From Burkholderiales bacterium (GTDB taxonomy: Bacteria > Pseudomonadota > Gammaproteobacteria > Burkholderiales > Usitatibacteraceae), in the NCBI GenBank assembly GCA_025359985.1, contig JANYDB010000128.1:1-64000 (forward strand): a stretch of 64,000 nt of DNA, written 5' to 3'. A model generated the notes under the pieces. The model made no database searches and was not told where the DNA came from. It saw only the letters and a program-made list of their open reading frames with translations. The position numbers were made by a program, and so were the translations under genes. Shown here piece by piece: positions 5,835 to 17,038 of this stretch. How positions within the stretch are numbered: the stretch's first letter is position 1; every line of letters starts with the position of its first letter.

Positions 5835-7457
5835 TCATTGCAACTTGGCAGGCGCTGCTGCCGGTGTCGTTGCGGGGGGAAGCACTGGCGAAAGTAGGTT
5901 CACCGGGGGCGGCAGTGGTAACGGCTTGGGTAATTTTAAACCGGGCTGTTTGGGTTTTGCCGCTTCAGATTTTGTTGTTTCAGTTCGGCCCATTTCAGTA
6001 TCGCTAAGCATTAAATCAAAACCATTCTCCGGCTCCAGCGGCTTTTCCAGCTTGGTCAGAATATCGCTGTAATTACGAATATTTTCGACAAACTGTACCG
6101 CCTCATCACCGCGCGCGGTGCCGTGCTTCAGGTTTTCATAATGCTCTGGCTCGCGCAGTTTTAAATATGCTTTTTTTACATCAAGCCATACATCGGCATT
6201 CAGATTGAGCCGTTTGGTGAGAATGCGCGCATCTTCCAAATGGCCGTAACCCTGGTTGTAAGCTGCTAATGCGAGCCAGGTACGATCAGGCTCCTGAATA
6301 CGGACCGGAACCGTATCGCGTAGCAGCGCCAAATAACGTGAGCCGCCGAGAATAGATTCACGTGCATCCAGCCGATTTTTGACACCCATGCGGTCGGCGG
6401 TATCTTCGGTTAGCATCATCAGGCCGCGCACGCCGGTGGGCGATGTTGCCAGCGGTTCCCAGTGCGATTCCTGATAGCCAATGGCTGCCAGTACGCGCCA
6501 GTCAATACCAGTGAGTTGTTGCGCCTCATGAAAATAGGGCCGCAGCTTGGGTAACACGCTTTGCATTTTTTCCAGTATCGCTTCGGAGTCCACTGCCTGA
6601 ATACGATTGGTGTGACCGTAATAGCGATCAATCAATCGGTTAAGCGTGCCGTTGCTGCGAATCTTATCGAAAAAAGCTGCAGATGTTTGCTGTGTTTCAA
6701 AATCAGTCTGCGGTGAGAATGCCCACGCTATTTTTGATTCGCGTCCCACATTAAACGCGCTGGCCAAATCAGGATGGACACGTTTGGCAACCTGGAACGC
6801 GAAACTATCCACTAACGAAAAATCACTTTTGCCGGATTCGATATGCGTCAGTAATTCATCGAGCGTGGTCTCAGCGGGCAACACATCCATCACGATGCTG
6901 GGTACTTCACCAGTTAAGCTACGTACTAAATCATGTGCGGGCGTCTCGGCAATTACGGCAACGCGCTTGCCAGCCAGCGCATTTAGCGCTTTTGGTTTGG
7001 GCTCAGCGACGCGATAAATCAACTGGTGCTGGAGTAATTTGTAGCTAGGACTAAACGAAAACTGCTGACGCAATTCAGGCGTGGGGGTTAAGCCCGCCAC
7101 CGCAACATGACCACGATTGTCTTTAAGCGCAGCCAGCAATGCAGGATAACTGGAGTACACCAAAAATTTGGGTGCGGCCCCCAGCTCGCGCGCAAATAAT
7201 GTCGCCAGATCATGTTCAAAACCGGTTTGGGTTTCGTCAGGCCCTTTACCGGCCTCAGCAATACTCTGCGTCGTGGTGGGGCCGCGGAGGGTGAGAAAAA
7301 TAACCTCGCCGGTTTGGCGCGGCGCTTTTAACGGCATTCGCAGCCAAAATGGCTCATAGGTTGTTTCCCGCACCCCAAACCCAAGCGATACGAAACCCGC
7401 CGCCACCGCTGCGGTGAGCAAACTACCGATAATAATTTTTCGACGCATGCGTTTCAT
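5835..7457 (-). CDS. mltF: Membrane-bound lytic murein transglycosylase F
   Basis: MltF cleaves the MurNAc-GlcNAc bond of peptidoglycan to give 1,6-anhydro ends. The 540-residue protein has an N-terminal positively charged signal/anchor (MKRMRRK followed by a hydrophobic stretch, residues 8-28). A periplasmic solute-binding-like (SBP_bac_3) domain covers about residues 50-285, and a C-terminal SLT domain about 305-465. The catalytic glutamate is E330 in GYQESHWEP, followed by the substrate-groove motif TGVRGLMML. A proline-rich tail (after about residue 495) is unusual in amount and probably unstructured. It is convergent with the phosphatase gene, only 10 bp apart. Confidence 0.95.
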   Translation of the reverse strand: MKRMRRKIIIGSLLTAAVAAGFVSLGFGVRETTYEPFWLRMPLKAPRQTGEVIFLTLRGPTTTQSIAEAGKGPDETQTGFEHDLATLFARELGAAPKFLVYSSYPALLAALKDNRGHVAVAGLTPTPELRQQFSFSPSYKLLQHQLIYRVAEPKPKALNALAGKRVAVIAETPAHDLVRSLTGEVPSIVMDVLPAETTLDELLTHIESGKSDFSLVDSFAFQVAKRVHPDLASAFNVGRESKIAWAFSPQTDFETQQTSAAFFDKIRSNGTLNRLIDRYYGHTNRIQAVDSEAILEKMQSVLPKLRPYFHEAQQLTGIDWRVLAAIGYQESHWEPLATSPTGVRGLMMLTEDTADRMGVKNRLDARESILGGSRYLALLRDTVPVRIQEPDRTWLALAAYNQGYGHLEDARILTKRLNLNADVWLDVKKAYLKLREPEHYENLKHGTARGDEAVQFVENIRNYSDILTKLEKPLEPENGFDLMLSDTEMGRTETTKSEAAKPKQPGLKLPKPLPLPPPVNLLSPVLPPATTPAAAPAKLQ

Positions 7458-7487
7458 TAGAGCGAGATATGCGTGCCGATAATCCCG

Positions 7488-8474
7488 CTAAGGGATAATC
7501 ACCAGCTTGCCGGTCGCGCGGCGGGCGAGTAAATCATTTAATGCTTGCGGTGCTTCATCAAGCGAATAGGTGCGTGAGATCAGCGGGCGAATTTTACCCT
7601 CGGCCATCCAGCCCATCATTTCTATGATCCCGCCCATATTGGCTTTAGGTTCGCGCTTGGCGAATTCGCCCCAGAACACACCCATAATCGACGCGCCTTT
7701 CAGCAACGGCAAATTCCATGGCAATGCCGGAATCGGGCCAGCTGCAAAACCAATCACCAGATAGCGCCCGCGCCACGCAATTGAGCGAAAGGCAGGCTCT
7801 GCGAACGGGCCACCGACAGGGTCAAAAATAACATCCGGGCCGCGACCTTCGGTAATACGTTTCAAGGCTTCACGCAAATCTTCTGTTTCATAATTGATGA
7901 GCGCATCGGCACCATGTTGTTTGCAAATATTGAGCTTCGCATCCGATGAAGCGGCGGCAATGACGCGCGCGCCGAGCGCTTTGCCGATTTCAACTGCGGC
8001 CAAACCCACACCACCGGCTGCGCCCAACACCAGCATGGTCTCACCCGCTTTCAATGCGGCGCGATCGCGCACGGCATGCCATGAAGTGCCGTATGCCAAG
8101 GTAAATACCGCAGCCACTTGTGCGTCCAGATTAGGTGGCATCGGCATGATGACCGCAGCAGGGGCAATGACTTCTTCAGCGAATCCACCGATGCCACAAA
8201 ACGCTACTACACGGTCACCGGCTTTAAAGTGTTTGACCCCATCACCGACTGAAATAATTTCGCCAGCCACTTCGGCACCTGGGGTGAAAGGGAAGGGCGG
8301 CTGCAATTGATATTTGCCCTGAACGATCAGTGCATCTGGAAAATTAACGCCAGCGGCTAATACCTGAATCCGCACCTCATCTGGTTTGGGTTCGCGCACC
8401 GCGATGTTAACAACACTGAGTTGATCGGGTGTGCCCCATTGCGCACAACTGACAGCACGGAAGAAAGCGCTCAT
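7488..8474 (-). CDS. NADPH:quinone oxidoreductase / zinc-type alcohol dehydrogenase-like protein (MDR superfamily)
   Basis: This is a medium-chain dehydrogenase/reductase of the quinone oxidoreductase branch. It has an N-terminal GroES-like domain with PGAEVAGEIISVGDGV, then a Rossmann fold with the NADP-binding LVLGAAGGVGLAAVEIGKALGA. No structural zinc cysteine cluster is seen, consistent with the zinc-free QOR group. The open frame extends to 8693. I start at 8474 (MSAFFRAVSCAQWGTP) because a GGAG Shine-Dalgarno sits at the right distance and the homologous N-terminus begins here, giving 328 residues. Upstream codons probably belong to the divergent promoter region shared with ispD. The physiological acceptor is unknown. 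Confidence 0.88.
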   Translation of the reverse strand: MSAFFRAVSCAQWGTPDQLSVVNIAVREPKPDEVRIQVLAAGVNFPDALIVQGKYQLQPPFPFTPGAEVAGEIISVGDGVKHFKAGDRVVAFCGIGGFAEEVIAPAAVIMPMPPNLDAQVAAVFTLAYGTSWHAVRDRAALKAGETMLVLGAAGGVGLAAVEIGKALGARVIAAASSDAKLNICKQHGADALINYETEDLREALKRITEGRGPDVIFDPVGGPFAEPAFRSIAWRGRYLVIGFAAGPIPALPWNLPLLKGASIMGVFWGEFAKREPKANMGGIIEMMGWMAEGKIRPLISRTYSLDEAPQALNDLLARRATGKLVIIP

Positions 8475-8598
8475 AACAACTCCAAAAATATTTTCAGGGA
8501 TAATACCAAAGATGCGCACAAGGTTATCACGGGCATACAACGATAAATTTAAGCCGTCGGCTATCAATCTATAATGAGCGCTGAATTCAAAAAATAAA

Positions 8599-9303
8599 AT
8601 GCCTATGAAATTAAAACTCATTGCCTTGGTGCCTGCAGCCGGTATGGGCACCCGCTTGGGCGATGCGTTGCCCAAGCAGTATCTGAATCTCAACGGCGTG
8701 CCGATGATTTTTCATGCGCTGAAAGCGCTCGCGGCGGTCAAGCGAATCGATAAAATCGTGGTGGTGCTGTCGCCCGAAGACAAGCATTGGCGGGCTTCTT
8801 CAGCCATTTTTGATAGTCTGGGCGCGCGTATTTCGGTGGCTTATATTGGCGGACAATCACGCGGCGAAAGCGTCGCTAATGGACTTGCTCACATCGAAGC
8901 GGAAATGGCCAAAGATGATTGGGTCATGGTGCATGATGCGGCGCGGCCGTGTATTCGCACTGAACTGGTAGAGCAGTTTATTGATGAGCTGGAAAGCGAT
9001 CTGGTCGGCGGTTTGTTGGCGCTACCGTTGGCTGACACCATCAAATTTGATGATGGTGATTTGCGTGTCGCAAAAACGATTCCGCGTGATGGTATCTGGC
9101 GCGCACAGACGCCACAAATGTTTCGCTTTGGCTTACTAAAAAATGCGCTGCGCAATTTTATGGAAGCAACCGATGAATCGCAAGCGATCGAATCTATCGG
9201 CCATCGACCCAAACTGGTCATGGGTGATAGCGCCAATCTTAAAGTCACCTACGCGCCAGACTTGCAACTGGCCGGGTTGCTGTTGAACGCCAATTCAAAA
9301 TAA
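8599..9303 (+). CDS. ispD: 2-C-methyl-D-erythritol 4-phosphate cytidylyltransferase
   Basis: IspD transfers CMP from CTP onto MEP in the non-mevalonate isoprenoid pathway. The N-terminus carries the nucleotide-binding VPAAGMGTRLGDALPKQY signature (residues 11-28), and the centre carries VHDAARPC, the conserved metal/substrate loop. Length is 234 residues from ATG 8599; a second in-frame ATG at 8605 is an equally plausible start. ispF follows after 12 bp, the common betaproteobacterial ispDF pair, so two steps of the MEP pathway (with the intervening IspE elsewhere) are cotranscribed. Confidence 0.97.
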   Translation: MPMKLKLIALVPAAGMGTRLGDALPKQYLNLNGVPMIFHALKALAAVKRIDKIVVVLSPEDKHWRASSAIFDSLGARISVAYIGGQSRGESVANGLAHIEAEMAKDDWVMVHDAARPCIRTELVEQFIDELESDLVGGLLALPLADTIKFDDGDLRVAKTIPRDGIWRAQTPQMFRFGLLKNALRNFMEATDESQAIESIGHRPKLVMGDSANLKVTYAPDLQLAGLLLNANSK

Positions 9304-9315
9304 GGGAAATCGCAT

Positions 9316-9804
9316 ATGAGCGCAGCTTTCAGAATCGGTCACGGCTTTGATGTGCACCCGCTAGTGCCGGGCCGAAAATGCATCATCGGCGGTGTTGAGA
9401 TTGCAAATGATCGCGGCCTGCTGGGTCACTCCGATGCGGATGTGCTGCTGCATGCCGTCTGCGATGCACTGCTGGGTGCGGCAGCACTCGGCGACATCGG
9501 TAAACATTTTCCGGACAGTGATACAAAATTCAAAGGCATCAACAGCCGTGAATTATTGAAGCATGTCGGTGCATTGATCCAGACGCAGGGCTATGAGGTG
9601 GGCAATATTGATGCAACCATTATTGCCCAGGCACCCCGCATGGCGACACACATACCTGCCATGGTCGGCAATATTGCGGCGGATCTTGGCTTGCATGTCA
9701 ATCAGGTTAATGTCAAAGCCACCACCACCGAGAAGCTTGGCTTTGCCGGACGTGGCGAAGGTATCGCCGCTGAAGCGGTCTGCTTAATTATTAAGCATCA
9801 CTGA
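9316..9804 (+). CDS. ispF: 2-C-methyl-D-erythritol 2,4-cyclodiphosphate synthase
   Basis: IspF cyclises CDP-ME 2-phosphate to MEcPP with release of CMP, as a Zn-dependent homotrimer. The 162 residues match the family length. The zinc ligands lie in GHGFDVHPL (D and H near residues 10-12) and in [20 protein letters not shown] (H about residue 44). [22 protein letters not shown] is the C-terminal nucleotide-site signature. The Shine-Dalgarno AAGGGAAA lies just upstream of ATG 9316. It is the last gene of the ispDF unit and is followed by a terminator candidate. Confidence 0.98.
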
Positions 9805-9814
9805 TCTGCTCGGC

Positions 9815-9850
9815 CCGCAGGTTTCGCCTGTCGGCGCATTTGCTTTTTTT
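9815..9850 (+). terminator. rho-independent terminator candidate after ispF
   Basis: CCGCAGG (9815-9821) pairs with CCTGTCGG (9827-9834) with one bulged T and a TTTCG loop. A run of seven Ts (9844-9850) follows about ten bases later. The stem-to-tract distance is longer than ideal, so efficiency may be partial. Confidence 0.55.
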
Positions 9851-9885
9851 CTTTAGAAGCATTCATTCAGAGCGCCTGAGGCACT

Positions 9886-9901
9886 TGGCACGGCGCTTGC
9901 A
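9886..9901 (+). promoter_or_regulatory. sigma-54 (RpoN) -24/-12 promoter
   Basis: TGGCAC (9886-9891), five bases, TTGCA (9897-9901) matches the RpoN consensus TGGCAC-N5-TTGCW. The invariant GG (9887-9888) and GC (9899-9900) have the required spacing. Transcription would start near 9912, giving a leader of about 220 nt before the DUF1800 gene. It lies in an intergenic region right after a terminator candidate and points at the downstream gene. An enhancer-binding-protein site was not identified. Confidence 0.75.
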
Positions 9902-10132
9902 AACAGTCATCCGGCATCTCGAATAGTTTGTTTTAACTAGACTTTGAGCGCGGGCAGTGACTGATTTCGGCACACCTGTCTCCGCTTAGAGACGATGGAT
10001 GATTTCGAACAAAACCGGCACAAACTCCATATTCAATTGAGATTGAATTTAGAGCTCACCTTGGCATCGGCGGACGCTAGAACAATTTCCACCATGATCA
10101 ATCGGGTTTTAAATATCAAAAAGGGAATGATA

Positions 10133-13100
10133 ATGAAACGATCAGCCACAGCCCGACTGTTTTATTCAAAACGCTTAAGGAATTTAAGACAGATTTTGTT
10201 TGCATTCGGTGTATTTTGCGCGGCACTGCTAATGGCATCACCGGCATTTGCGCAACAAGCTGCGTCGCAAACAGCACTGCAAGGTGCCACCGTCTCAATG
10301 TGGAACCTTTATAGCCCGATCCTCGATTCGCATGTGGTTGTTACTTCCAAAGTCAGCTATGATTTCCTGATCAGTGTTGGCTGGCAGGGGCAGGGCGTGG
10401 CTTACACGGCGCTGAGCGAACCAGGCCAGGTTGATGGTGTGCCGAGCATGCCGCTATATCGGCTTTACAGCGAAATCATTGGCACCCATTTTTACGCCAC
10501 CCAAAAATGGGCTTATGATTTTCTGGTCAGCCAGGGTTGGAAAGGCGAGGGCATCCGTGCTCATGTTCTGACGCGCGCCACACCATCAGCAATTGCGCTG
10601 GAACGGTTCTGGCATCCTGGCAAACGCCGTCACTTCTGGAGTACCGATCCAGCTGACCGCACCAGGCTGCCCGCCCAAGGCTGGGAATACAACGGTGTGG
10701 TGGGGTATGTTTTACCCGCCACGTTCAATCCCGTCAATGCGGTGCTGCCGCGTTTGCAGCTAGATAGTTCTGTGGCTCTGGGGGTTGTACCGCCTGCCAC
10801 GATTACGCTATCCGTTAAGTCGGCACAAAGCAGCATGGTATGGACCAAGGTCGAATACTATGCGAATAATTTACCCGGCAATACCAAGCTGGGCGAGACG
10901 GCTAATATAGCCATGCCATTTACGTGGAATCCCGGCAATATTGCACAGGGCATTTATGATTTCATGGCGATTGGCACGACCTCAACCGGTGAGCGCATCG
11001 TCACCAATACGGTCAGCATATCGGTGCGGCCTAGAGCTGCAGCGGCCCCGGCTAACATTCCACCTTTGATCAATCTGCAATCGCCCACCAACGGAATCAC
11101 AGTTTCTACTGCCAGTAATATCTCCATCAGTGCAGACGCCAGCGATAGTGATGGTGTCATTGCCCGCGTGGAATTTTTTGCAGATGGTCAAAAGTTAGGT
11201 GAGAAAAATCTGCCTCCTTATAGTTTTGCGTGGCAGCCTTCGGCAGGCGTGCACACCATTACCGTGATCGCCACCGACGATACCAGCGCTAAAAGCAGCA
11301 CAACGCCGGTGATCATTACGGCCAGTAACAGCGTGCTACCGCCGGTGAGCAATCAGCCGCCCACCATCAGCCTCTCAGCACCAGTCAGCAACTTAAACGT
11401 GACCGTCGGCGCGGCGATCAATATGGCGGCCACGGCAGCCGACAGCGACGGTACGGTGGCCAAGGTTGAATTTTTTGCCAATGGCAACAAACTTGGCGAA
11501 GCTACACAGTCTCCCTACACATTCATTTGGACTAATGCAGCCGCCGGTATTTATAGCATCACCGCCAAAGCGACTGACAATCTGGGCCTGAGCGCCACTA
11601 CAGCGCCGGTCAGCATTAATGTGAATGCGGCTGTGGTCATTCCACCGCCCCCTCCACCACCACCACCACCCGCGCCCGGCAATACAGCGCCCACCGTCAG
11701 TCTCACGGCACCAGCCAACAACGCCAGCATAAATGCAGGAACCGCGATTACTATTTCCGCCAACGCAGCCGATGCGAACGGGACTGTGAGCAAGGTGGAA
11801 TTCTTTGCTAACGGTGCCAAGCTCGGTGAGGATACGCAAACACCTTATACGTTTGTGTGGGTCAACGCGGCCGCAGGCTCATACAACCTTACCGCGAAGG
11901 CAACCGATAACGTGGGTGCTGCAACCACTAGCACAGGCATTAACGTGGTCGTCGTCGGCGCGGTTACGCCGCCGGTAGTCGGCAACGGCACAGGCTTGCT
12001 GGCAGAGTATTTTAATAATATTGATCTTATTGCGCCATCAACAGTGGTGCGGGTTGACAGCAATGTTGATTTTGCATGGCTCGATGCAACCATTCCTGCG
12101 CCCGGCATTAACGCCAGTAATTTCTCAGTGCGCTGGACGGGTGAAGTTATTGCCCCCGTTACCGGCGGTGTAATTTTTTCGACTTCCAGTGACGACGGTG
12201 TACGTCTCTGGATTAGCAATCAGCCCAACATCAATAACTGGACTGGGCATGGGGCCACAGTCGATACCGGGGCCGCCGTACAAATGGTGGCGGGGCAGCG
12301 TTATCCGATTCGCCTGGAATACTTTCAGGGCGGTGGCGGCAAGGAAATTAAGCTGCGCTGGGCGCATAGCAGTAACAGCAATATTGCCCAAGCCGTGCCG
12401 ATGGTGAATCTGATGCCGGCCACAACGGCTAATTTTACGCTGCTCCTCACGCTCGCGGCCACTTCACCGGACAGTTTTACGGCACCGAGTGCCATCACGC
12501 TCACCGCTAATCCCACGGTATCGGTTTCCGGTAGCCCGATTGCCAAAGTGGAATTTTTCCAAAGTGCGATGCAGGGCGCTACAAAGCTTGGCGAAGCAGT
12601 GGCTGCACCTTGGGTTTACAACTGGGCGAGCGTCGTCGAAGGTGCCTACAACGTAACGGCACGCGTCACCGATAGTAACGGCGCTACGGGTAGCTCGCTG
12701 CCTGTAAGCTTTACGGTGGCTGCGTCGCCATTAGCAATTTCGGCGGCCACCCGTGATGCGGCACGGTTTCTGGATCAGGCCAGCTTCGGCTCAACGCGTG
12801 AAGAAATTGCGCGGGTCGCCAGTATCGGCATTGATGCTTACCTGAATGAACAATTTGGCGCACCACAAACCTTGCATGTGGATACGGTGCGTAATGATCC
12901 GCTCTATCCCACCCAGCCTTATGCGGTCATGACGCCGTCAATCTGGAAGCAATATTTCGAGGCCAATGATCAACTGCGTCAGCGTGTTGTCTCTGCGTTG
13001 TCGCAAATATTGGTGATCTCGCAGCAGAACAATACGCTCGGTGATCAAGCATGCGCAACGGCGTCATACCTCGATATGCTGGGCCGCAATGCGTTTGGTA

Positions 13101-14401
13101 ATTTCCGCGATATTTTGAAACAAGTCACCCTCAGCCCGGCCATGGGTGAATACCTTGATATGAAGCGCAGCGCGAAAGCAGATGCGGTGCTTAAATCAAA
13201 TCCAAGCGAAAACTATGCGCGTGAATTGATGCAGTTGTTTTCGATCGGTACGGTCATGCTGAATATCGACGGCTCAGTACAATTCAGCAACGGTAAAGCC
13301 GTCGATTCCTACAATGAGGCGAGCGTCCAAGAAGTGGCGCGGGCATTAACCGGCTGGTTCTACGCGGGACAAGACCAAACCAAAACCTGGCGGTGGATAT
13401 ATCCCGATGTGCCGTATCCGAGTGATGCCGCAACGGCTGCCAAAGCTTGCACTGCATGGTCAACCCCGATGGAACCCTGGCGTGCAGCCTATCGCTCCAG
13501 CGACAACACCCGTGATATCACCGGCTCACCACATGACACGGGTGCCAAGACTTTGCTTAGCTATCCCGGCGCAGCCAGCCATAAGCAAAGTCTGCCCGCC
13601 AACCAAACGCCGGAGCAGGATCTGGATGATGTGATCGAAAATGTTTTTAACCATCCCAACGTCGGCACTTTTATCAGCGAGCTGATGATTCAGCGCCTGA
13701 CGGCCAGTAACCCCAGCGGTGCTTATGTGGCGCGGGTGGCGGGTATTTTTAATAACAACGGTACTGGTATTCGTGGCGATATGAAGGCGGTGGTGAGAGC
13801 TATTTTGATGGATGCCGAAGCACGTACTTCGGTGTCGAGTCAAGCGGCATCATTTGGCAAATTACGCGAGCCGATTCTCCGTTTTACGCAAATGCATCGT
13901 GCGTTTGGCGCGCGTATAGCCAGCGGTAATTATGCAAATATCTACGACCTTAGTAGCTCTGACAGCCTCAGCCAAAGCCCGTTGCGTGCGCCAAGTGTGT
14001 TTAATTTCTACCATCCAGATTTCTCGCCAACAGGCCCGGTTTCCCGCGCTTCATTGGTGGGGCCGGAGTTTGAAATTACTAATAGCGCCACGGTGGCCGG
14101 ATTTATGGAGTTCAGTAAATACGCCATCATTGGCGGCTTCGGTCAATATGAATCGGACAAAAATAAATGGCTCAAGCCAAATTATGATTATTACGTGGGC
14201 TTGGCGGGTACCCCGGCAGCCATGGTGGATGCGCTTAATTTGCTACTGCTGTCAGGCTCAATGAGTCCGCAATTCCGCACGCAGCTCGTCGATGTCGCAA
14301 CCAAATTGACCGATAGCAACGCGCTCACGCAAAGTAGCGAACGCTTCAGGCTCGTGCTGTGGCTGATTCTGAATTCGCCTGAATACTCCATACAAAAATA
14401 A
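10133..14401 (+). CDS. Large secreted DUF1800 protein with DUF5648-like, Ig-like and PA14 domains
   Basis: I start at ATG 10133 (1422 residues), which has AAGGGA upstream and opens a signal peptide: KR-rich n-region, FAFGVFCAALLMASPAFA, cleavage near residue 39. Residues about 56-196 hold three 'lyR.y....gTHFYat...y.fl...GW.geG' repeats of the DUF5648 type. Four to five bacterial Ig-like domains follow (about 200-300, 310-405, 409-500, 519-615, 768-862), with the repeated signature KVEFFANGxKLGE. The third and fourth are separated by a 10-proline linker (nt about 11643-11672). A PA14-type domain (GLLAEYFNN... to LRWAHSS, about 619-746) lies before the last Ig domain. From about 871 to the end is DUF1800 (ARFLDQASFGST...; SENYARELMQLFSIG; LTGWFY). 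DUF1800 function is not established; it is characteristically encoded next to DUF1501, as here. PA14 and Ig modules suggest carbohydrate or surface binding outside the cell. Confidence 0.88.
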   Translation: MKRSATARLFYSKRLRNLRQILFAFGVFCAALLMASPAFAQQAASQTALQGATVSMWNLYSPILDSHVVVTSKVSYDFLISVGWQGQGVAYTALSEPGQVDGVPSMPLYRLYSEIIGTHFYATQKWAYDFLVSQGWKGEGIRAHVLTRATPSAIALERFWHPGKRRHFWSTDPADRTRLPAQGWEYNGVVGYVLPATFNPVNAVLPRLQLDSSVALGVVPPATITLSVKSAQSSMVWTKVEYYANNLPGNTKLGETANIAMPFTWNPGNIAQGIYDFMAIGTTSTGERIVTNTVSISVRPRAAAAPANIPPLINLQSPTNGITVSTASNISISADASDSDGVIARVEFFADGQKLGEKNLPPYSFAWQPSAGVHTITVIATDDTSAKSSTTPVIITASNSVLPPVSNQPPTISLSAPVSNLNVTVGAAINMAATAADSDGTVAKVEFFANGNKLGEATQSPYTFIWTNAAAGIYSITAKATDNLGLSATTAPVSINVNAAVVIPPPPPPPPPPAPGNTAPTVSLTAPANNASINAGTAITISANAADANGTVSKVEFFANGAKLGEDTQTPYTFVWVNAAAGSYNLTAKATDNVGAATTSTGINVVVVGAVTPPVVGNGTGLLAEYFNNIDLIAPSTVVRVDSNVDFAWLDATIPAPGINASNFSVRWTGEVIAPVTGGVIFSTSSDDGVRLWISNQPNINNWTGHGATVDTGAAVQMVAGQRYPIRLEYFQGGGGKEIKLRWAHSSNSNIAQAVPMVNLMPATTANFTLLLTLAATSPDSFTAPSAITLTANPTVSVSGSPIAKVEFFQSAMQGATKLGEAVAAPWVYNWASVVEGAYNVTARVTDSNGATGSSLPVSFTVAASPLAISAATRDAARFLDQASFGSTREEIARVASIGIDAYLNEQFGAPQTLHVDTVRNDPLYPTQPYAVMTPSIWKQYFEANDQLRQRVVSALSQILVISQQNNTLGDQACATASYLDMLGRNAFGNFRDILKQVTLSPAMGEYLDMKRSAKADAVLKSNPSENYARELMQLFSIGTVMLNIDGSVQFSNGKAVDSYNEASVQEVARALTGWFYAGQDQTKTWRWIYPDVPYPSDAATAAKACTAWSTPMEPWRAAYRSSDNTRDITGSPHDTGAKTLLSYPGAASHKQSLPANQTPEQDLDDVIENVFNHPNVGTFISELMIQRLTASNPSGAYVARVAGIFNNNGTGIRGDMKAVVRAILMDAEARTSVSSQAASFGKLREPILRFTQMHRAFGARIASGNYANIYDLSSSDSLSQSPLRAPSVFNFYHPDFSPTGPVSRASLVGPEFEITNSATVAGFMEFSKYAIIGGFGQYESDKNKWLKPNYDYYVGLAGTPAAMVDALNLLLLSGSMSPQFRTQLVDVATKLTDSNALTQSSERFRLVLWLILNSPEYSIQK

Positions 14402-14411
14402 GGAATATGAC

Positions 14412-15932
14412 ATGAAAAAAATTGACCTTCATATGGATCGTCGCGGCTTTGTAAAAGCGATCGCAACAGCTGCCGCCGCACCGATGCTGGGCAGCATCAT
14501 GCAGGCAGCCCATGCAGCCGGGCCGTTCAGTGATTACCGCGCGATGGTATGTGTTTTTTTATTTGGTGGCAACGACAGCCAGAACATGATTATTCCGCTG
14601 GGAAGCGAATACGCGGGATACGCAGCAGGCCGTGGTAATTTGGCCATACCCGCCGCAAATGCATTACCGCTCAATGCGAATATATCGGGGCGTTCATTTG
14701 GTCTGCACCCGTCCATGACCGGATTGGCAAATATTTTTAATACAGATCGCAAGCTTGCCGTACTCTCCAATGTTGGGGTGTTACTGCAGCCGACAACGTT
14801 GACAGCTTATCAAGCGCGTTCCAATTTGCCACCGCAATTATTTTCACATTCAGATATGCAAACTCACTGGCAATCCGGTCGGCCTGATTATCCGGCGCTG
14901 AACGGCTGGGGAGGGCGGCTGGCAGACACGGTTGAAGCGGCCAACGGTAATAGCCAGGTATCGGTATCGATCAGTGTTGCGGGGCAGAACTTGCTGCAAA
15001 AAGGTGATCGTGTGGTGAGCTACACGGTATCAGGTTGGGGTGGGCCGAAAAACACGATTTCAAAACGGCTACGCGCTTACCGCGACTGGGATAATTATTC
15101 GGCTTCCCGCCCAGCTCCGCAGTCTGCGTTTGAAACCCAGCTCAATATCGCCCGCAGCAATATTCTGGAAGACCAGTGGGGCGATATGGCGGCACGCGCG
15201 CTGGGTAGCGGTGATTTTGTCAACGGTGTTCTCTATAACCTGGATGCCACGGGCAATCCGCTCAAAGACGCGGCTGGCAATATTTCTGAAAAGTTTGCCG
15301 TGAGCCCGGCACCGCCCACCACCTACACGGATTCTTCGGGCAATCTGCAGTCGAATCGTTTGGCAGGGCAGTTGCGCTCTGTGGCCAACATGATCGCTGC
15401 CCGCGATAGTTTGGGCGTGAAGCGCCAAATATTTTTTGTATCTATCGGCGGCTTTGATACCCATGGCGATCAATTCAAAAATTCAAACAACACGACTACG
15501 CCTATTTTGAGTGGTGCGCATGCTGATCTTTTGAAACAAATTGATGATGCGCTCAGCTGGTTTTATAACTGGACTAAAGCGCAAAATATTGCCAACAATG
15601 TCACCACCTTCACCATGTCTGATTTCGGTCGAACGCTGAGCTCGAACGGCGCTGGCAGTGATCATGGTTGGGGCGGACACCATTTTGCATTGGGTGGCGC
15701 GGTCAACGGCGGGACGCTCTATGGCGGGCCTGGTGCTGGGCAGGAGTTTCCGACTGTTGTTATCGGCGGCTCGACTGATGTGGGGCAAGGACGCTTGCTG
15801 CCGACTACATCGGTCGATGAATATGGTGCCACGTTGGCAAAGTGGATGGGGGCGTCAGCGAGCGATCTGACCACCATATTTCCTAACTTGGGCCGCTTCG
15901 CACGTTCAGGTGGGATGTCATTTTTGACTTGA
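14412..15932 (+). CDS. DUF1501 family protein, Tat-exported
   Basis: This 506-residue protein opens with a twin-arginine signal (DRRGFVKAIATAAAAPMLG, near residues 10-28, cleaved after a second Ala-rich stretch ending AHA). Tat export implies folding, possibly with a cofactor, before secretion. DUF1501 is a sulfatase/alkaline-phosphatase-like fold family. Signatures seen are VFLFGGNDSQNMIIPL near residue 47, SIGGFDTHGDQ in the centre and SDFGRTLSSNG with GSDHGWGGHHFALGG towards the C-terminus. The D/H-rich motifs look like metal ligands, though the reaction is unknown. It begins 10 bp after the DUF1800 gene and is surely cotranscribed. Confidence 0.9.
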   Translation: MKKIDLHMDRRGFVKAIATAAAAPMLGSIMQAAHAAGPFSDYRAMVCVFLFGGNDSQNMIIPLGSEYAGYAAGRGNLAIPAANALPLNANISGRSFGLHPSMTGLANIFNTDRKLAVLSNVGVLLQPTTLTAYQARSNLPPQLFSHSDMQTHWQSGRPDYPALNGWGGRLADTVEAANGNSQVSVSISVAGQNLLQKGDRVVSYTVSGWGGPKNTISKRLRAYRDWDNYSASRPAPQSAFETQLNIARSNILEDQWGDMAARALGSGDFVNGVLYNLDATGNPLKDAAGNISEKFAVSPAPPTTYTDSSGNLQSNRLAGQLRSVANMIAARDSLGVKRQIFFVSIGGFDTHGDQFKNSNNTTTPILSGAHADLLKQIDDALSWFYNWTKAQNIANNVTTFTMSDFGRTLSSNGAGSDHGWGGHHFALGGAVNGGTLYGGPGAGQEFPTVVIGGSTDVGQGRLLPTTSVDEYGATLAKWMGASASDLTTIFPNLGRFARSGGMSFLT

Positions 15933-15982
15933 TTAACTTAACGAAAAATTGTTCATGAGCATGCTGATTTAGTTTAAACGGC

Positions 15983-17038
15983 TTAATCTGCACCACTCAG
16001 ACGGTTTACGATCTTTCGGGAAATTTGCGATAGCGGGGCAACCACCTCTGCCGCGCCTAACTCGATAGCTTCTTTGGGCATGCCAAATACAATACTGCTG
16101 GTTTCGTCCTGCGCAATGGTGAACGCGCCGTTACTGCGCATGGCCAGTAAACCCTTTGCACCGTCTTTGCCCATGCCGGTAAGGATAACCCCGATGGCAT
16201 CAGCGCCTGCGGCTTCTGCAGCCGATTGAAACAAAACATCAACGGATGGCCGATGCAGATTGACCGGCGCATCAGCGCCCAGTTTGATGCCGTAACCGCG
16301 GCCAGCATAGCGTTCAACCCGCAAGTGAAACCCGCCAGGCGCAACATAGGCATGGCCGGGTAGTACCGCCTCCTCGTCTTCTGCTTCTTTAACGGTAATT
16401 TTGCAAAGTCCATCAAGGCGTTTTGCAAACAGTTTGGTGAAGGTGGCCGGCATATGCTGCGCAATTAGAATCGCCGGCGAGTCTTCCGGCATGGAAACCA
16501 GAATATCTTTTAATGCCTCTGCGCCGCCCGTTGAAGCGCCCATAAAAATAATACGGTTGGTCGATTGCAGGTTGTTGCCTAGCAGCGGTAATACCTCGTC
16601 TGCATCGACCGCCCGATTGATGTCAAGCGGCTCAATTTTGTCGCGTGCCGCATACGCGCCGCGAATTTTTTCAACGATCAATTGCGCGTAGTCTTCATCA
16701 GCGCCCGATACCGAGGTTGGCTTGCCGACGAAATCAACAGCGCCCATTGCAAGTGCACGGAAGGCAACATCTGAGCCTTCCTGAGTGTGCGAGGAGAGCA
16801 TGACCACCGGCATTGGTCGTACCCGCATCAGGCGGCGCAAAAAAGACAGCCCGTTCATGTTGGGCATTTCAATATCCAGGGTGAGAACATCCGGGTTCAG
16901 GGTGCGAATCATTTCCCGTGCAATTAACGGATCAGGCGCTGCGCCGACCACCATCATGTCAGTTTGCTCGTTGATGATTTCTTTCAGGATGTTACGGATC
17001 AGCGCCGAATCATCAATCACTAAAACTTTAATTTTCAT
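15983..17038 (-). CDS. cheB: Chemotaxis protein-glutamate methylesterase/deamidase CheB
   Basis: CheB removes methyl groups from receptor glutamates when phosphorylated by CheA. The 351-residue protein has an N-terminal receiver domain (acidic pair D9-D10, phospho-acceptor D55 in LTLDIEMPNMNG). A C-terminal methylesterase follows with the Ser nucleophile in MGASTGGAEAL, the His in AQHMPATFT and the Asp in LTGMGKDG. All catalytic elements are intact. It is the last gene of the nine-gene minus-strand chemotaxis operon and is convergent with the DUF1501 gene. Confidence 0.97.
   Translation of the reverse strand: MKIKVLVIDDSALIRNILKEIINEQTDMMVVGAAPDPLIAREMIRTLNPDVLTLDIEMPNMNGLSFLRRLMRVRPMPVVMLSSHTQEGSDVAFRALAMGAVDFVGKPTSVSGADEDYAQLIVEKIRGAYAARDKIEPLDINRAVDADEVLPLLGNNLQSTNRIIFMGASTGGAEALKDILVSMPEDSPAILIAQHMPATFTKLFAKRLDGLCKITVKEAEDEEAVLPGHAYVAPGGFHLRVERYAGRGYGIKLGADAPVNLHRPSVDVLFQSAAEAAGADAIGVILTGMGKDGAKGLLAMRSNGAFTIAQDETSSIVFGMPKEAIELGAAEVVAPLSQISRKIVNRLSGAD

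What the first reader, a model, noticed from the sequence alone, without database searches (positions are those of the whole stretch)
9886..9901. Consensus sigma-54 promoter drives the DUF1800/DUF1501 pair
The sequence shows TGGCAC-N5-TTGCA with the exact spacing RpoN requires, placed just after the ispDF terminator candidate and upstream of a two-gene unit of unknown role. RpoN promoters need an enhancer-binding protein, so the unit should be switched on by a specific signal. I know of no described RpoN regulation for DUF1800/DUF1501 pairs. The 220-nt leader is also unusual.
Basis: partly seen in the sequence, partly recalled or inferred. Interest (0 to 1): 0.68.

Follow-up and report, generated by a model that had tools for sequence, protein, structure and literature searches.

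The report
RpoN-QseF switch for secreted protein pair
A textbook RpoN (sigma-54) promoter sits in front of two exported proteins of unknown function, and comparison with relatives suggests that the envelope-sensing QseE-QseG-QseF system switches it on, a link that our literature searches did not find described.

Summary
The element is real: TTGGCACGGCGCTTGCA, 9885-9901, is the only exact -24/-12 match in the window, between ispF and a DUF1800/DUF1501 pair. Exactness alone proves little (5 exact sites in 3.43 Mb, near chance). Conservation is the evidence: sigma-54 elements recur before genes of the two DUF1800 clades that hold the window gene and close relatives (15 of 18 rows with upstream sequence, 4 of them weak) and before a second pair of this genome; other clades reach the same score in 0 of 35 rows. 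Most carry a dyad, usually 50-54 bp upstream, fitting the published QseF consensus TGT-N12-ACA. The same dyads, in pairs, precede a sigma-54 promoter beside qseF in 19 of 19 genomes read. Rows in qseEF genomes have the site in 16 of 40 cases, rows in other genomes in 0 of 15. In the window the dyad lies downstream, at 9977-9994 in the leader: the best QseF-box match in 64 kb (18.5, next 10.2). Weak points: the assembly has qseE but breaks off in qseG, so qseF is not seen; no transcription data. In passing: a structured sRNA beside qseF, without Rfam match.

The parts
   Evidence: ORF listed; relatives found with it
9813..9850 (+). candidate intrinsic terminator of ispDF (hairpin 9813-9837, T run 9844-9850)
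   Evidence: fold (-15.6 kcal/mol, z -1.25); not called by the scan
9885..9901 (+). sigma-54 (-24/-12) promoter element TTGGCACGGCGCTTGCA
   Evidence: score 19.7 of 21.0 with my approximate matrix; conserved in relatives
9912..10132 (+). predicted 5' leader (about 221 nt) from the expected transcription start to the likely start codon
   Evidence: inferred from the -12 position and the start codon; no unusual structure; no Rfam family over threshold
9977..9994 (.). candidate QseF box TGTCTCCGCTTAGAGACG (inverted repeat), 75 nt downstream of the sigma-54 element
   Evidence: best match in the whole window to a matrix made from qseF-adjacent promoters: 18.5, next best 10.2; also best with the first matrix, 12.4 against 11.3
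10133..14401 (+). exported DUF1800 protein with DUF5648, Ig-like (Big_7) and PA14 domains
   Evidence: Pfam; start codon and signal peptide by inspection
14412..15932 (+). DUF1501 protein with twin-arginine N-terminus
   Evidence: Pfam; RR invariant in 9 of 9 aligned proteins

Best explanation
TTGGCACGGCGCTTGCA is a working RpoN promoter for the DUF1800-DUF1501 unit, and the unit belongs to the regulon of QseE-QseG-QseF (GlrK-GlrR), the envelope-sensing three-component system. RpoN polymerase waits at 9885-9901; phosphorylated QseF binds dyads of the type TGTCGC-N6-GCGACA and opens the complex. In most relatives the dyad lies 50-75 bp upstream of the -24 element; in the window the best candidate lies in the leader (9977-9994), so looping from downstream would be needed. 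The products are a Sec-type exported multidomain DUF1800 protein and a Tat-type DUF1501 protein, presumably acting on the cell surface or its glycans. Shown by computation: the element, its conservation, the dyads, their link to the qseF locus, the domains. Inferred: transcription, QseF binding, action from downstream, the biochemical role.
For: Site exact and intergenic. rpoN present. Of 61 DUF1800 rows of the family, 55 have at least 150 bases upstream; scores of 13 or more occur in 4 of 6 rows of the window clade, 7 of 12 of the neighbouring clade 4b and the C13 pair of this genome, 0 of 35 in the other clades; random windows of the scanned length, 800 bases, reach 13 in 2.1%. Published QseF consensus TGT-N12-ACA (PMC6075780, passages) within 140 bp upstream of the best site: 9 of 18 rows in the two clades, 1 of 35 in the others, 2.0% of random pieces. 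Anchor: the 3' flank of qseF has a sigma-54 element with two such dyads at 74-77 and 138-143 bp in 19 of 19 genomes read. A matrix from 36 of those boxes puts the best hit of the 64-kb window at 9977-9994 (18.5 against 10.2); the same TGTCTC-N6-GAGACA form is the distal box beside qseF in six genomes. qseE and qseF occur together; DUF1800 sites: 16 of 40 rows with qseEF, 0 of 15 without. The three other enhancer-binding proteins of this genome have orthologues (66-78% identity) in G010, G013 and G014, whose 8 DUF1800 rows lack the element. Own genome: qseE has an exact sigma-54 element, and qseG aligns to the last base of contig C25. Order-wide pattern search (dyad plus promoter): 11 of 399 genomes, reversed control 1; 3 of the 11 places precede DUF1800 genes, one in another family.
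Against: qseF is not found in this assembly, nor is the qseF-linked sRNA; an assembly gap is inferred, not shown. In the window no dyad lies upstream (best 0.2); the candidate is downstream and ends in ACG, not ACA. The orthologue in G018 has its box 129 bp upstream, so position is not fixed in this clade. 24 of 40 rows in qseEF genomes lack the element. Corrected for kinship the qseEF association is not significant (about 2 informative pairs for, 0 against). L125 and L194, of another clade, have a dyad without a good sigma-54 element, and L205, in a qseEF-less but only 73%-complete genome, has a dyad alone. The qseE promoter of this genome shows no dyad. My sigma-54 matrix is approximate and from recall.
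Confidence: 0.68

Rival explanations
1. The RpoN promoter is real but another enhancer-binding protein serves it in this strain: NtrC (C126), the PilR-like protein (C16, with sensor) or the one beside a pilus/type II-like cluster (C45).
For: These three are the only strong matches to the enhancer-binding-protein domain in the assembly; a pilin-like gene has an exact sigma-54 element too.
Against: The dyad matches QseF and recurs at the qseF locus; orthologues of all three (66-78% identity) are in G010, G013 and G014, whose 8 DUF1800 rows lack the element.
Confidence: 0.17
2. Relic: the strain, like some of its genus, has lost qseF, and the promoter is silent or decaying.
For: qseF and its sRNA were not found in the assembly; seven of 28 family genomes, three of them under 90% complete, show neither qseE nor qseF.
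Against: qseE is a full-length frame with an exact sigma-54 element, and qseG is in frame and alignable to the very end of the contig; the -24/-12 element here scores highest of all 61 rows.
Confidence: 0.08
3. Chance match; the pair is read from ispDF or from an unseen sigma-70 promoter.
For: 5 exact sites per genome is near chance; two of the five lie in places without an obvious target.
Against: Conservation of the element in orthologues with changed spacers and context; the sigma-70 scan shows no site on the + strand between 9805 and 10132.
Confidence: 0.05
4. The dyad in the leader acts as an RNA hairpin or a repressor site rather than as an enhancer (can hold together with an RpoN promoter).
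For: It is downstream of the promoter and transcribed; most of it is paired in the predicted fold.
Against: Leader fold is ordinary (z -0.99); the fit to the qseF-locus boxes is 8 bits above any other place in the window.
Confidence: 0.15

Closest known systems
QseF (GlrR)-dependent sigma-54 promoters of glmY and rpoE in Escherichia coli
   Same: -24/-12 element plus dyads TGT-N12-ACA (also given as TGTC-N10-GACA); envelope-related targets; one target beside the qseEGF operon (PMC6075780 and PMC8745638, passages)
   Different: Target here is a secreted DUF1800/DUF1501 pair; the window box lies downstream of the promoter; in relatives the RNA gene follows qseF instead of preceding qseE and matched no Rfam family
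DUF1800-DUF1501 operons next to bacterial chitin synthase genes
   Same: Same gene pair in one unit; Tat motif on DUF1501 (PMC5122149, passages)
   Different: No chitin synthase among the seven genes from 5835 to 17038 (ispD and ispF named from recall); the passages seen say nothing on regulation
Sigma-54 as controller of the bacterial exterior (comparative study)
   Same: General rule that RpoN targets are surface functions; lists QseF-like regulators (PMC3162934, start of abstract and one passage)
   Different: Its main text does not contain DUF1800 or DUF1501
qseEGF clusters across Pseudomonadota, Betaproteobacteria included
   Same: Same operon order qseE-qseG-qseF (PMC12691602, passages; G018 locus)
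   Different: The passages seen name no DUF1800/DUF1501 target

Membership tests
sigma-54 (-24/-12) promoter | GG and GC at fixed spacing in a TGGCACG-N4-TTGCW context | tested here: met
sigma-54 (-24/-12) promoter | conserved upstream of orthologous genes | tested here: met
   window clade: 4 of 6 rows with upstream sequence (3 further rows lack it because contigs end); the 2 without are in qseEF-less genomes
sigma-54 (-24/-12) promoter | rpoN and enhancer-binding proteins encoded in the genome | tested here: met
sigma-54 (-24/-12) promoter | transcription start 12 bases behind GC and dependence on RpoN | not testable with these tools
   needs RNA data and a mutant
QseF regulon | dyad TGT-N12-ACA near the promoter | tested here: inconclusive
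   window: TGTCTCCGCTTAGAGACG, one base off at the end (ACG), as in 3 of 36 qseF-locus boxes; relatives: exact consensus in 9 of 18 rows of the two clades
QseF regulon | dyad upstream of the -24 element | tested here: not met
   window: best upstream score 0.2. The other 15 rows counted as sites all have an upstream dyad over the 95% level of random pieces (7.3), 10 of them over the 99% level (14.6)
QseF regulon | QseF encoded in the same genome | tested here: inconclusive
   qseE and part of qseG present, contig ends there, qseF not found
QseF regulon | QseF binds and activates | not testable with these tools
   needs protein and reporter work

The most novel reading that the evidence does not exclude
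In this betaproteobacterial family QseEGF runs a regulon made of a structured sRNA beside qseF and one or more secreted DUF1800/DUF1501 pairs, so that an envelope signal is answered both by RNA control and by a surface-acting enzyme pair; in the window lineage the enhancer has moved into the transcribed leader and QseF activates RpoN from downstream.
Probability: 0.3. Interest if true: 0.72.

Novelty: new member of a known kind. Interest (0 to 1): 0.58.

Why it matters
DUF1800 and DUF1501 proteins are widespread and, as far as the searches here show, without known function; only four papers of the open-access library mention DUF1800 at all. A defined sensor, activator, promoter and partner RNA give a condition under which to look for their role, and they extend QseEGF, studied in enteric bacteria, to a secreted output in another group of bacteria.

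Tried and rejected
Raw motif counts as proof of the promoter: rejected, since exact sites are near chance. Counting enhancer-binding proteins by Pfam alone did not decide; the QseF- and QseE-specific searches did, and a first classification script missed the three G000 proteins, which was made good. A strict combined pattern in the family found only 3 places in 28 genomes, one of them inside a gene. The hairpin at 9822-9839 as the QseF box: rejected (score 0.2). A known RNA in the leader: none over threshold, ordinary fold. Structure of the DUF1501 protein from its single sequence: mean pLDDT 31.9, unusable, so no fold search was made. PDB sequence search: none for DUF1501 up to E 0.1; for the DUF1800 protein five chains, matched over its N-terminal modules (Ig, fibronectin-type, a chitodextrinase and a glycoside hydrolase). 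The genome-contig scan with ispF was not useful for the question. S17 of Bordetella (PMC11722255, passages) was considered for the sRNA: different place (next to coq7) and a sigma-A promoter; its sequence was not compared.

The DUF1800 counts leave out 6 of 61 rows whose contigs end within 150 bases of the frame start (L187, L195, L196, L199, L200, L218); short fragments listed (G000:C26, G015:C242, G012:C4) were not used as rows. The four weak sites (L184, L188, L216, L217; scores 10.3-11.9) were counted as sites because a dyad lies 53 bp upstream, a choice made after seeing the data; 10% of random 800-base windows reach 10. G000 was counted as qseEF-bearing on the strength of qseE; without its 4 rows the count is 14 of 36 against 0 of 15 (Fisher p 0.0045). 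The first dyad matrix was built from the DUF1800 sites themselves; the second from qseF-locus boxes, but those were picked with the first matrix at two fixed spacings, so it is not wholly independent; the test with the published consensus is.

Full report
What was claimed. A consensus sigma-54 element at 9886-9901 drives a DUF1800/DUF1501 pair; such control is undescribed; the 220-nt leader is unusual.

The observation. The sequence is there, with correct spacing and orientation, between ispF (stop at 9804) and the DUF1800 gene (likely start 10133). It is the only exact match in the window. In the whole assembly the exact pattern TGGCAC-N5-TTGCW occurs five times, close to what equal base use predicts; with one mismatch allowed there are 174 matches against 94 for the reversed pattern. 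Of the five, one is upstream of the gene identified below as qseE (C25), one upstream of a pilin-like gene (C45), one is the window site, one lies inside an open frame (C30) and one between two genes that point the other way (C59). So the motif alone is suggestive, not proof.

The machinery. The genome has one rpoN match and three strong matches to the sigma-54 activator domain, of eight over the Pfam cut-off: NtrC (over the NCBIfam cut-off), a PilR-like protein with a sensor kinase beside it, and a third beside a pilus/type II-like cluster (the name PilR-like is from context and recall).

Conservation. DUF1800 genes were found in 26 of 28 genomes of the family. 57 of the matches were fetched with upstream sequence and joined by three of G000 and the window gene: 61 rows. 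A tree of the DUF1800 domain separates short proteins (20 rows), a group of about 690-1140 aa (11 rows), the window clade (9 rows), a clade 4a (7 rows) and a clade 4b (12 rows), with L124 (second pair of this genome, C13) and L219 on long branches (clade names mine). Of the 55 rows with at least 150 bases upstream, scores of 13 or more occur in 4 of 6 of the window clade (window, L202, L215, L220), 7 of 12 of 4b, and L124; none of 20, 10 and 5 in the other clades, and not L219. Four further rows of 4b score 10.3-11.9 and have a dyad at 53 bp; one, L211, has nothing. Rows were scanned over up to 800 bases of one strand; random 800-base windows of the same loci reach 10 in 10%, 13 in 2.1% and 15 in 1.2%. 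The G018 orthologue (77% and 78% identity for the two proteins) is not next to ispDF, so the element travels with the pair.

The enhancer. Reading the upstream regions side by side showed a recurring inverted repeat, TGTYGC-N6-GCRACA, 52-54 bp before the -24 element in ten loci of four genera, at 75 in L210 and 129 in L215; L220 has it at 50, L124 a weaker one at 73. E. coli QseF binds TGT-N12-ACA (PMC6075780, passages), also given as TGTC-N10-GACA (PMC8745638, passages). With the published consensus, exact dyads within 140 bp upstream of the best site are found in 2 of 6 rows of the window clade and 7 of 12 of 4b, against 1 of 35 rows of the other clades, 0 of 2 for L124 and L219, and 2.0% of random 140-bp pieces; one at 50-54 bp occurs in 0.02% of pieces.

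Who binds it. A QseF orthologue (64-81% identity to the G018 protein, one cut by a contig end) is found in 20 of 28 genomes, G018 included; QseE in the same 20 plus G000. The 3' flank of qseF was read in 19 genomes: a sigma-54 element (scores 11.6-20.0 in 18; in G012 a TGGCAT type read by eye) is preceded by two dyads at 74-77 and 138-143 bp in 19 of 19. Rows of DUF1800 genes in qseEF genomes (G000 counted for its qseE) have the site in 16 of 40 cases, rows in the other genomes in 0 of 15 (Fisher p 0.0025 without correction for kinship; 14 of 36 and p 0.0045 without G000; in tree-independent pairs about 2 for, 0 against, not significant). In the window clade the two members in qseEF-less genomes with upstream sequence (L213, L214) have neither element nor dyad. 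Orthologues of the three other enhancer-binding proteins are present in G010, G013 and G014 (66-78% identity), which lack qseEF and whose DUF1800 rows lack the element; that speaks against those three as the regulator.

The window itself. Upstream of 9885 there is no dyad. A matrix made from 36 qseF-locus boxes gives its best score in all 64 kb at 9977-9994, TGTCTCCGCTTAGAGACG, 18.5 bits against 10.2 for the next place. The same TGTCTC-N6-GAGACA form is the distal box beside qseF in G001, G002, G004, G005, G007 and G008. Activation from downstream is known for sigma-54 systems (recall), but here it is inference.

Does this strain have QseF? qseE is a full-length frame, and qseG runs, in frame and aligned with its G018 relative, to the very first base of contig C25. 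No further trace of qseF or the linked RNA was found. A gap in a 129-contig assembly is the simplest reading, but loss is not excluded.

Wider view. An unbiased search of 399 genomes of the order for dyad plus promoter at 48-58 bp gave 11 genomes, against 1 for the reversed pattern. Three of the 11 places stand before DUF1800 genes, two in this family and one in G108 of another family. Others stand before a nitrite-reductase-like gene, a His-rich secreted protein (two genomes) and a glycine-zipper lipoprotein; at least two lie inside genes and look like chance, two were not resolved (names by eye, not by family search).

What the pair may do. The DUF1800 protein has DUF5648, Ig-like and PA14 domains and a signal peptide by eye; the nine DUF1501 proteins aligned share an N-terminal RR motif and invariant D, H and R residues. 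DUF1800/DUF1501 pairs also travel with bacterial chitin synthase genes (PMC5122149, passages). With QseEGF as an envelope system, action on the surface or its glycans is the likeliest role; this is inference.

Verdict. The promoter call is supported by conservation and is best read as a QseF-type RpoN promoter. The QseF part is well supported for the family and less so for this strain.

Noticed in passing
L290 (G018:C65, 3' of qseF) and L273-L291: A conserved RNA, read as about 114-141 nt in 16 flanks (two shorter, one cut by a contig end), follows qseF behind the sigma-54 promoter with two QseF boxes; core AGAGTGCGCCTT in 18 of 19 flanks, terminator hairpin with 4 of 8 pairs showing changes on both sides, G018 RNA folds at z -6.65 with C/U-rich loops; no Rfam family over threshold in the 5 flanks searched. 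Order-wide, 38 of 399 genomes match at E up to 0.001; the 8 strong ones (E below 1e-14) are all of this family and have qseF, the other 30 are weak. By position and control it looks like an analogue of GlmY.
   Followed up: partly
G000:C25:1857-1872 (-), locus L128: Exact sigma-54 element 24 bases upstream of the listed qseE start in the window's genome, without a recognisable QseF dyad.
   Followed up: partly
G000:C45:18908-18923 (-), locus L130: Exact sigma-54 element upstream of a prepilin-like gene, with two TGTC-N9-GACA repeats upstream, a spacing different from the QseF dyad.
   Followed up: no
L125 (G000:C115) and L194 (G018): DUF1800 genes of another clade carry a QseF-type dyad upstream but no good sigma-54 element.
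   Followed up: no
L254, L255, L256 (G136, G380, G156): In other families the dyad-plus-promoter arrangement (two dyads in G136 and G156) precedes genes of a His-rich secreted protein and of a glycine-zipper lipoprotein: possible QseF targets.
   Followed up: no
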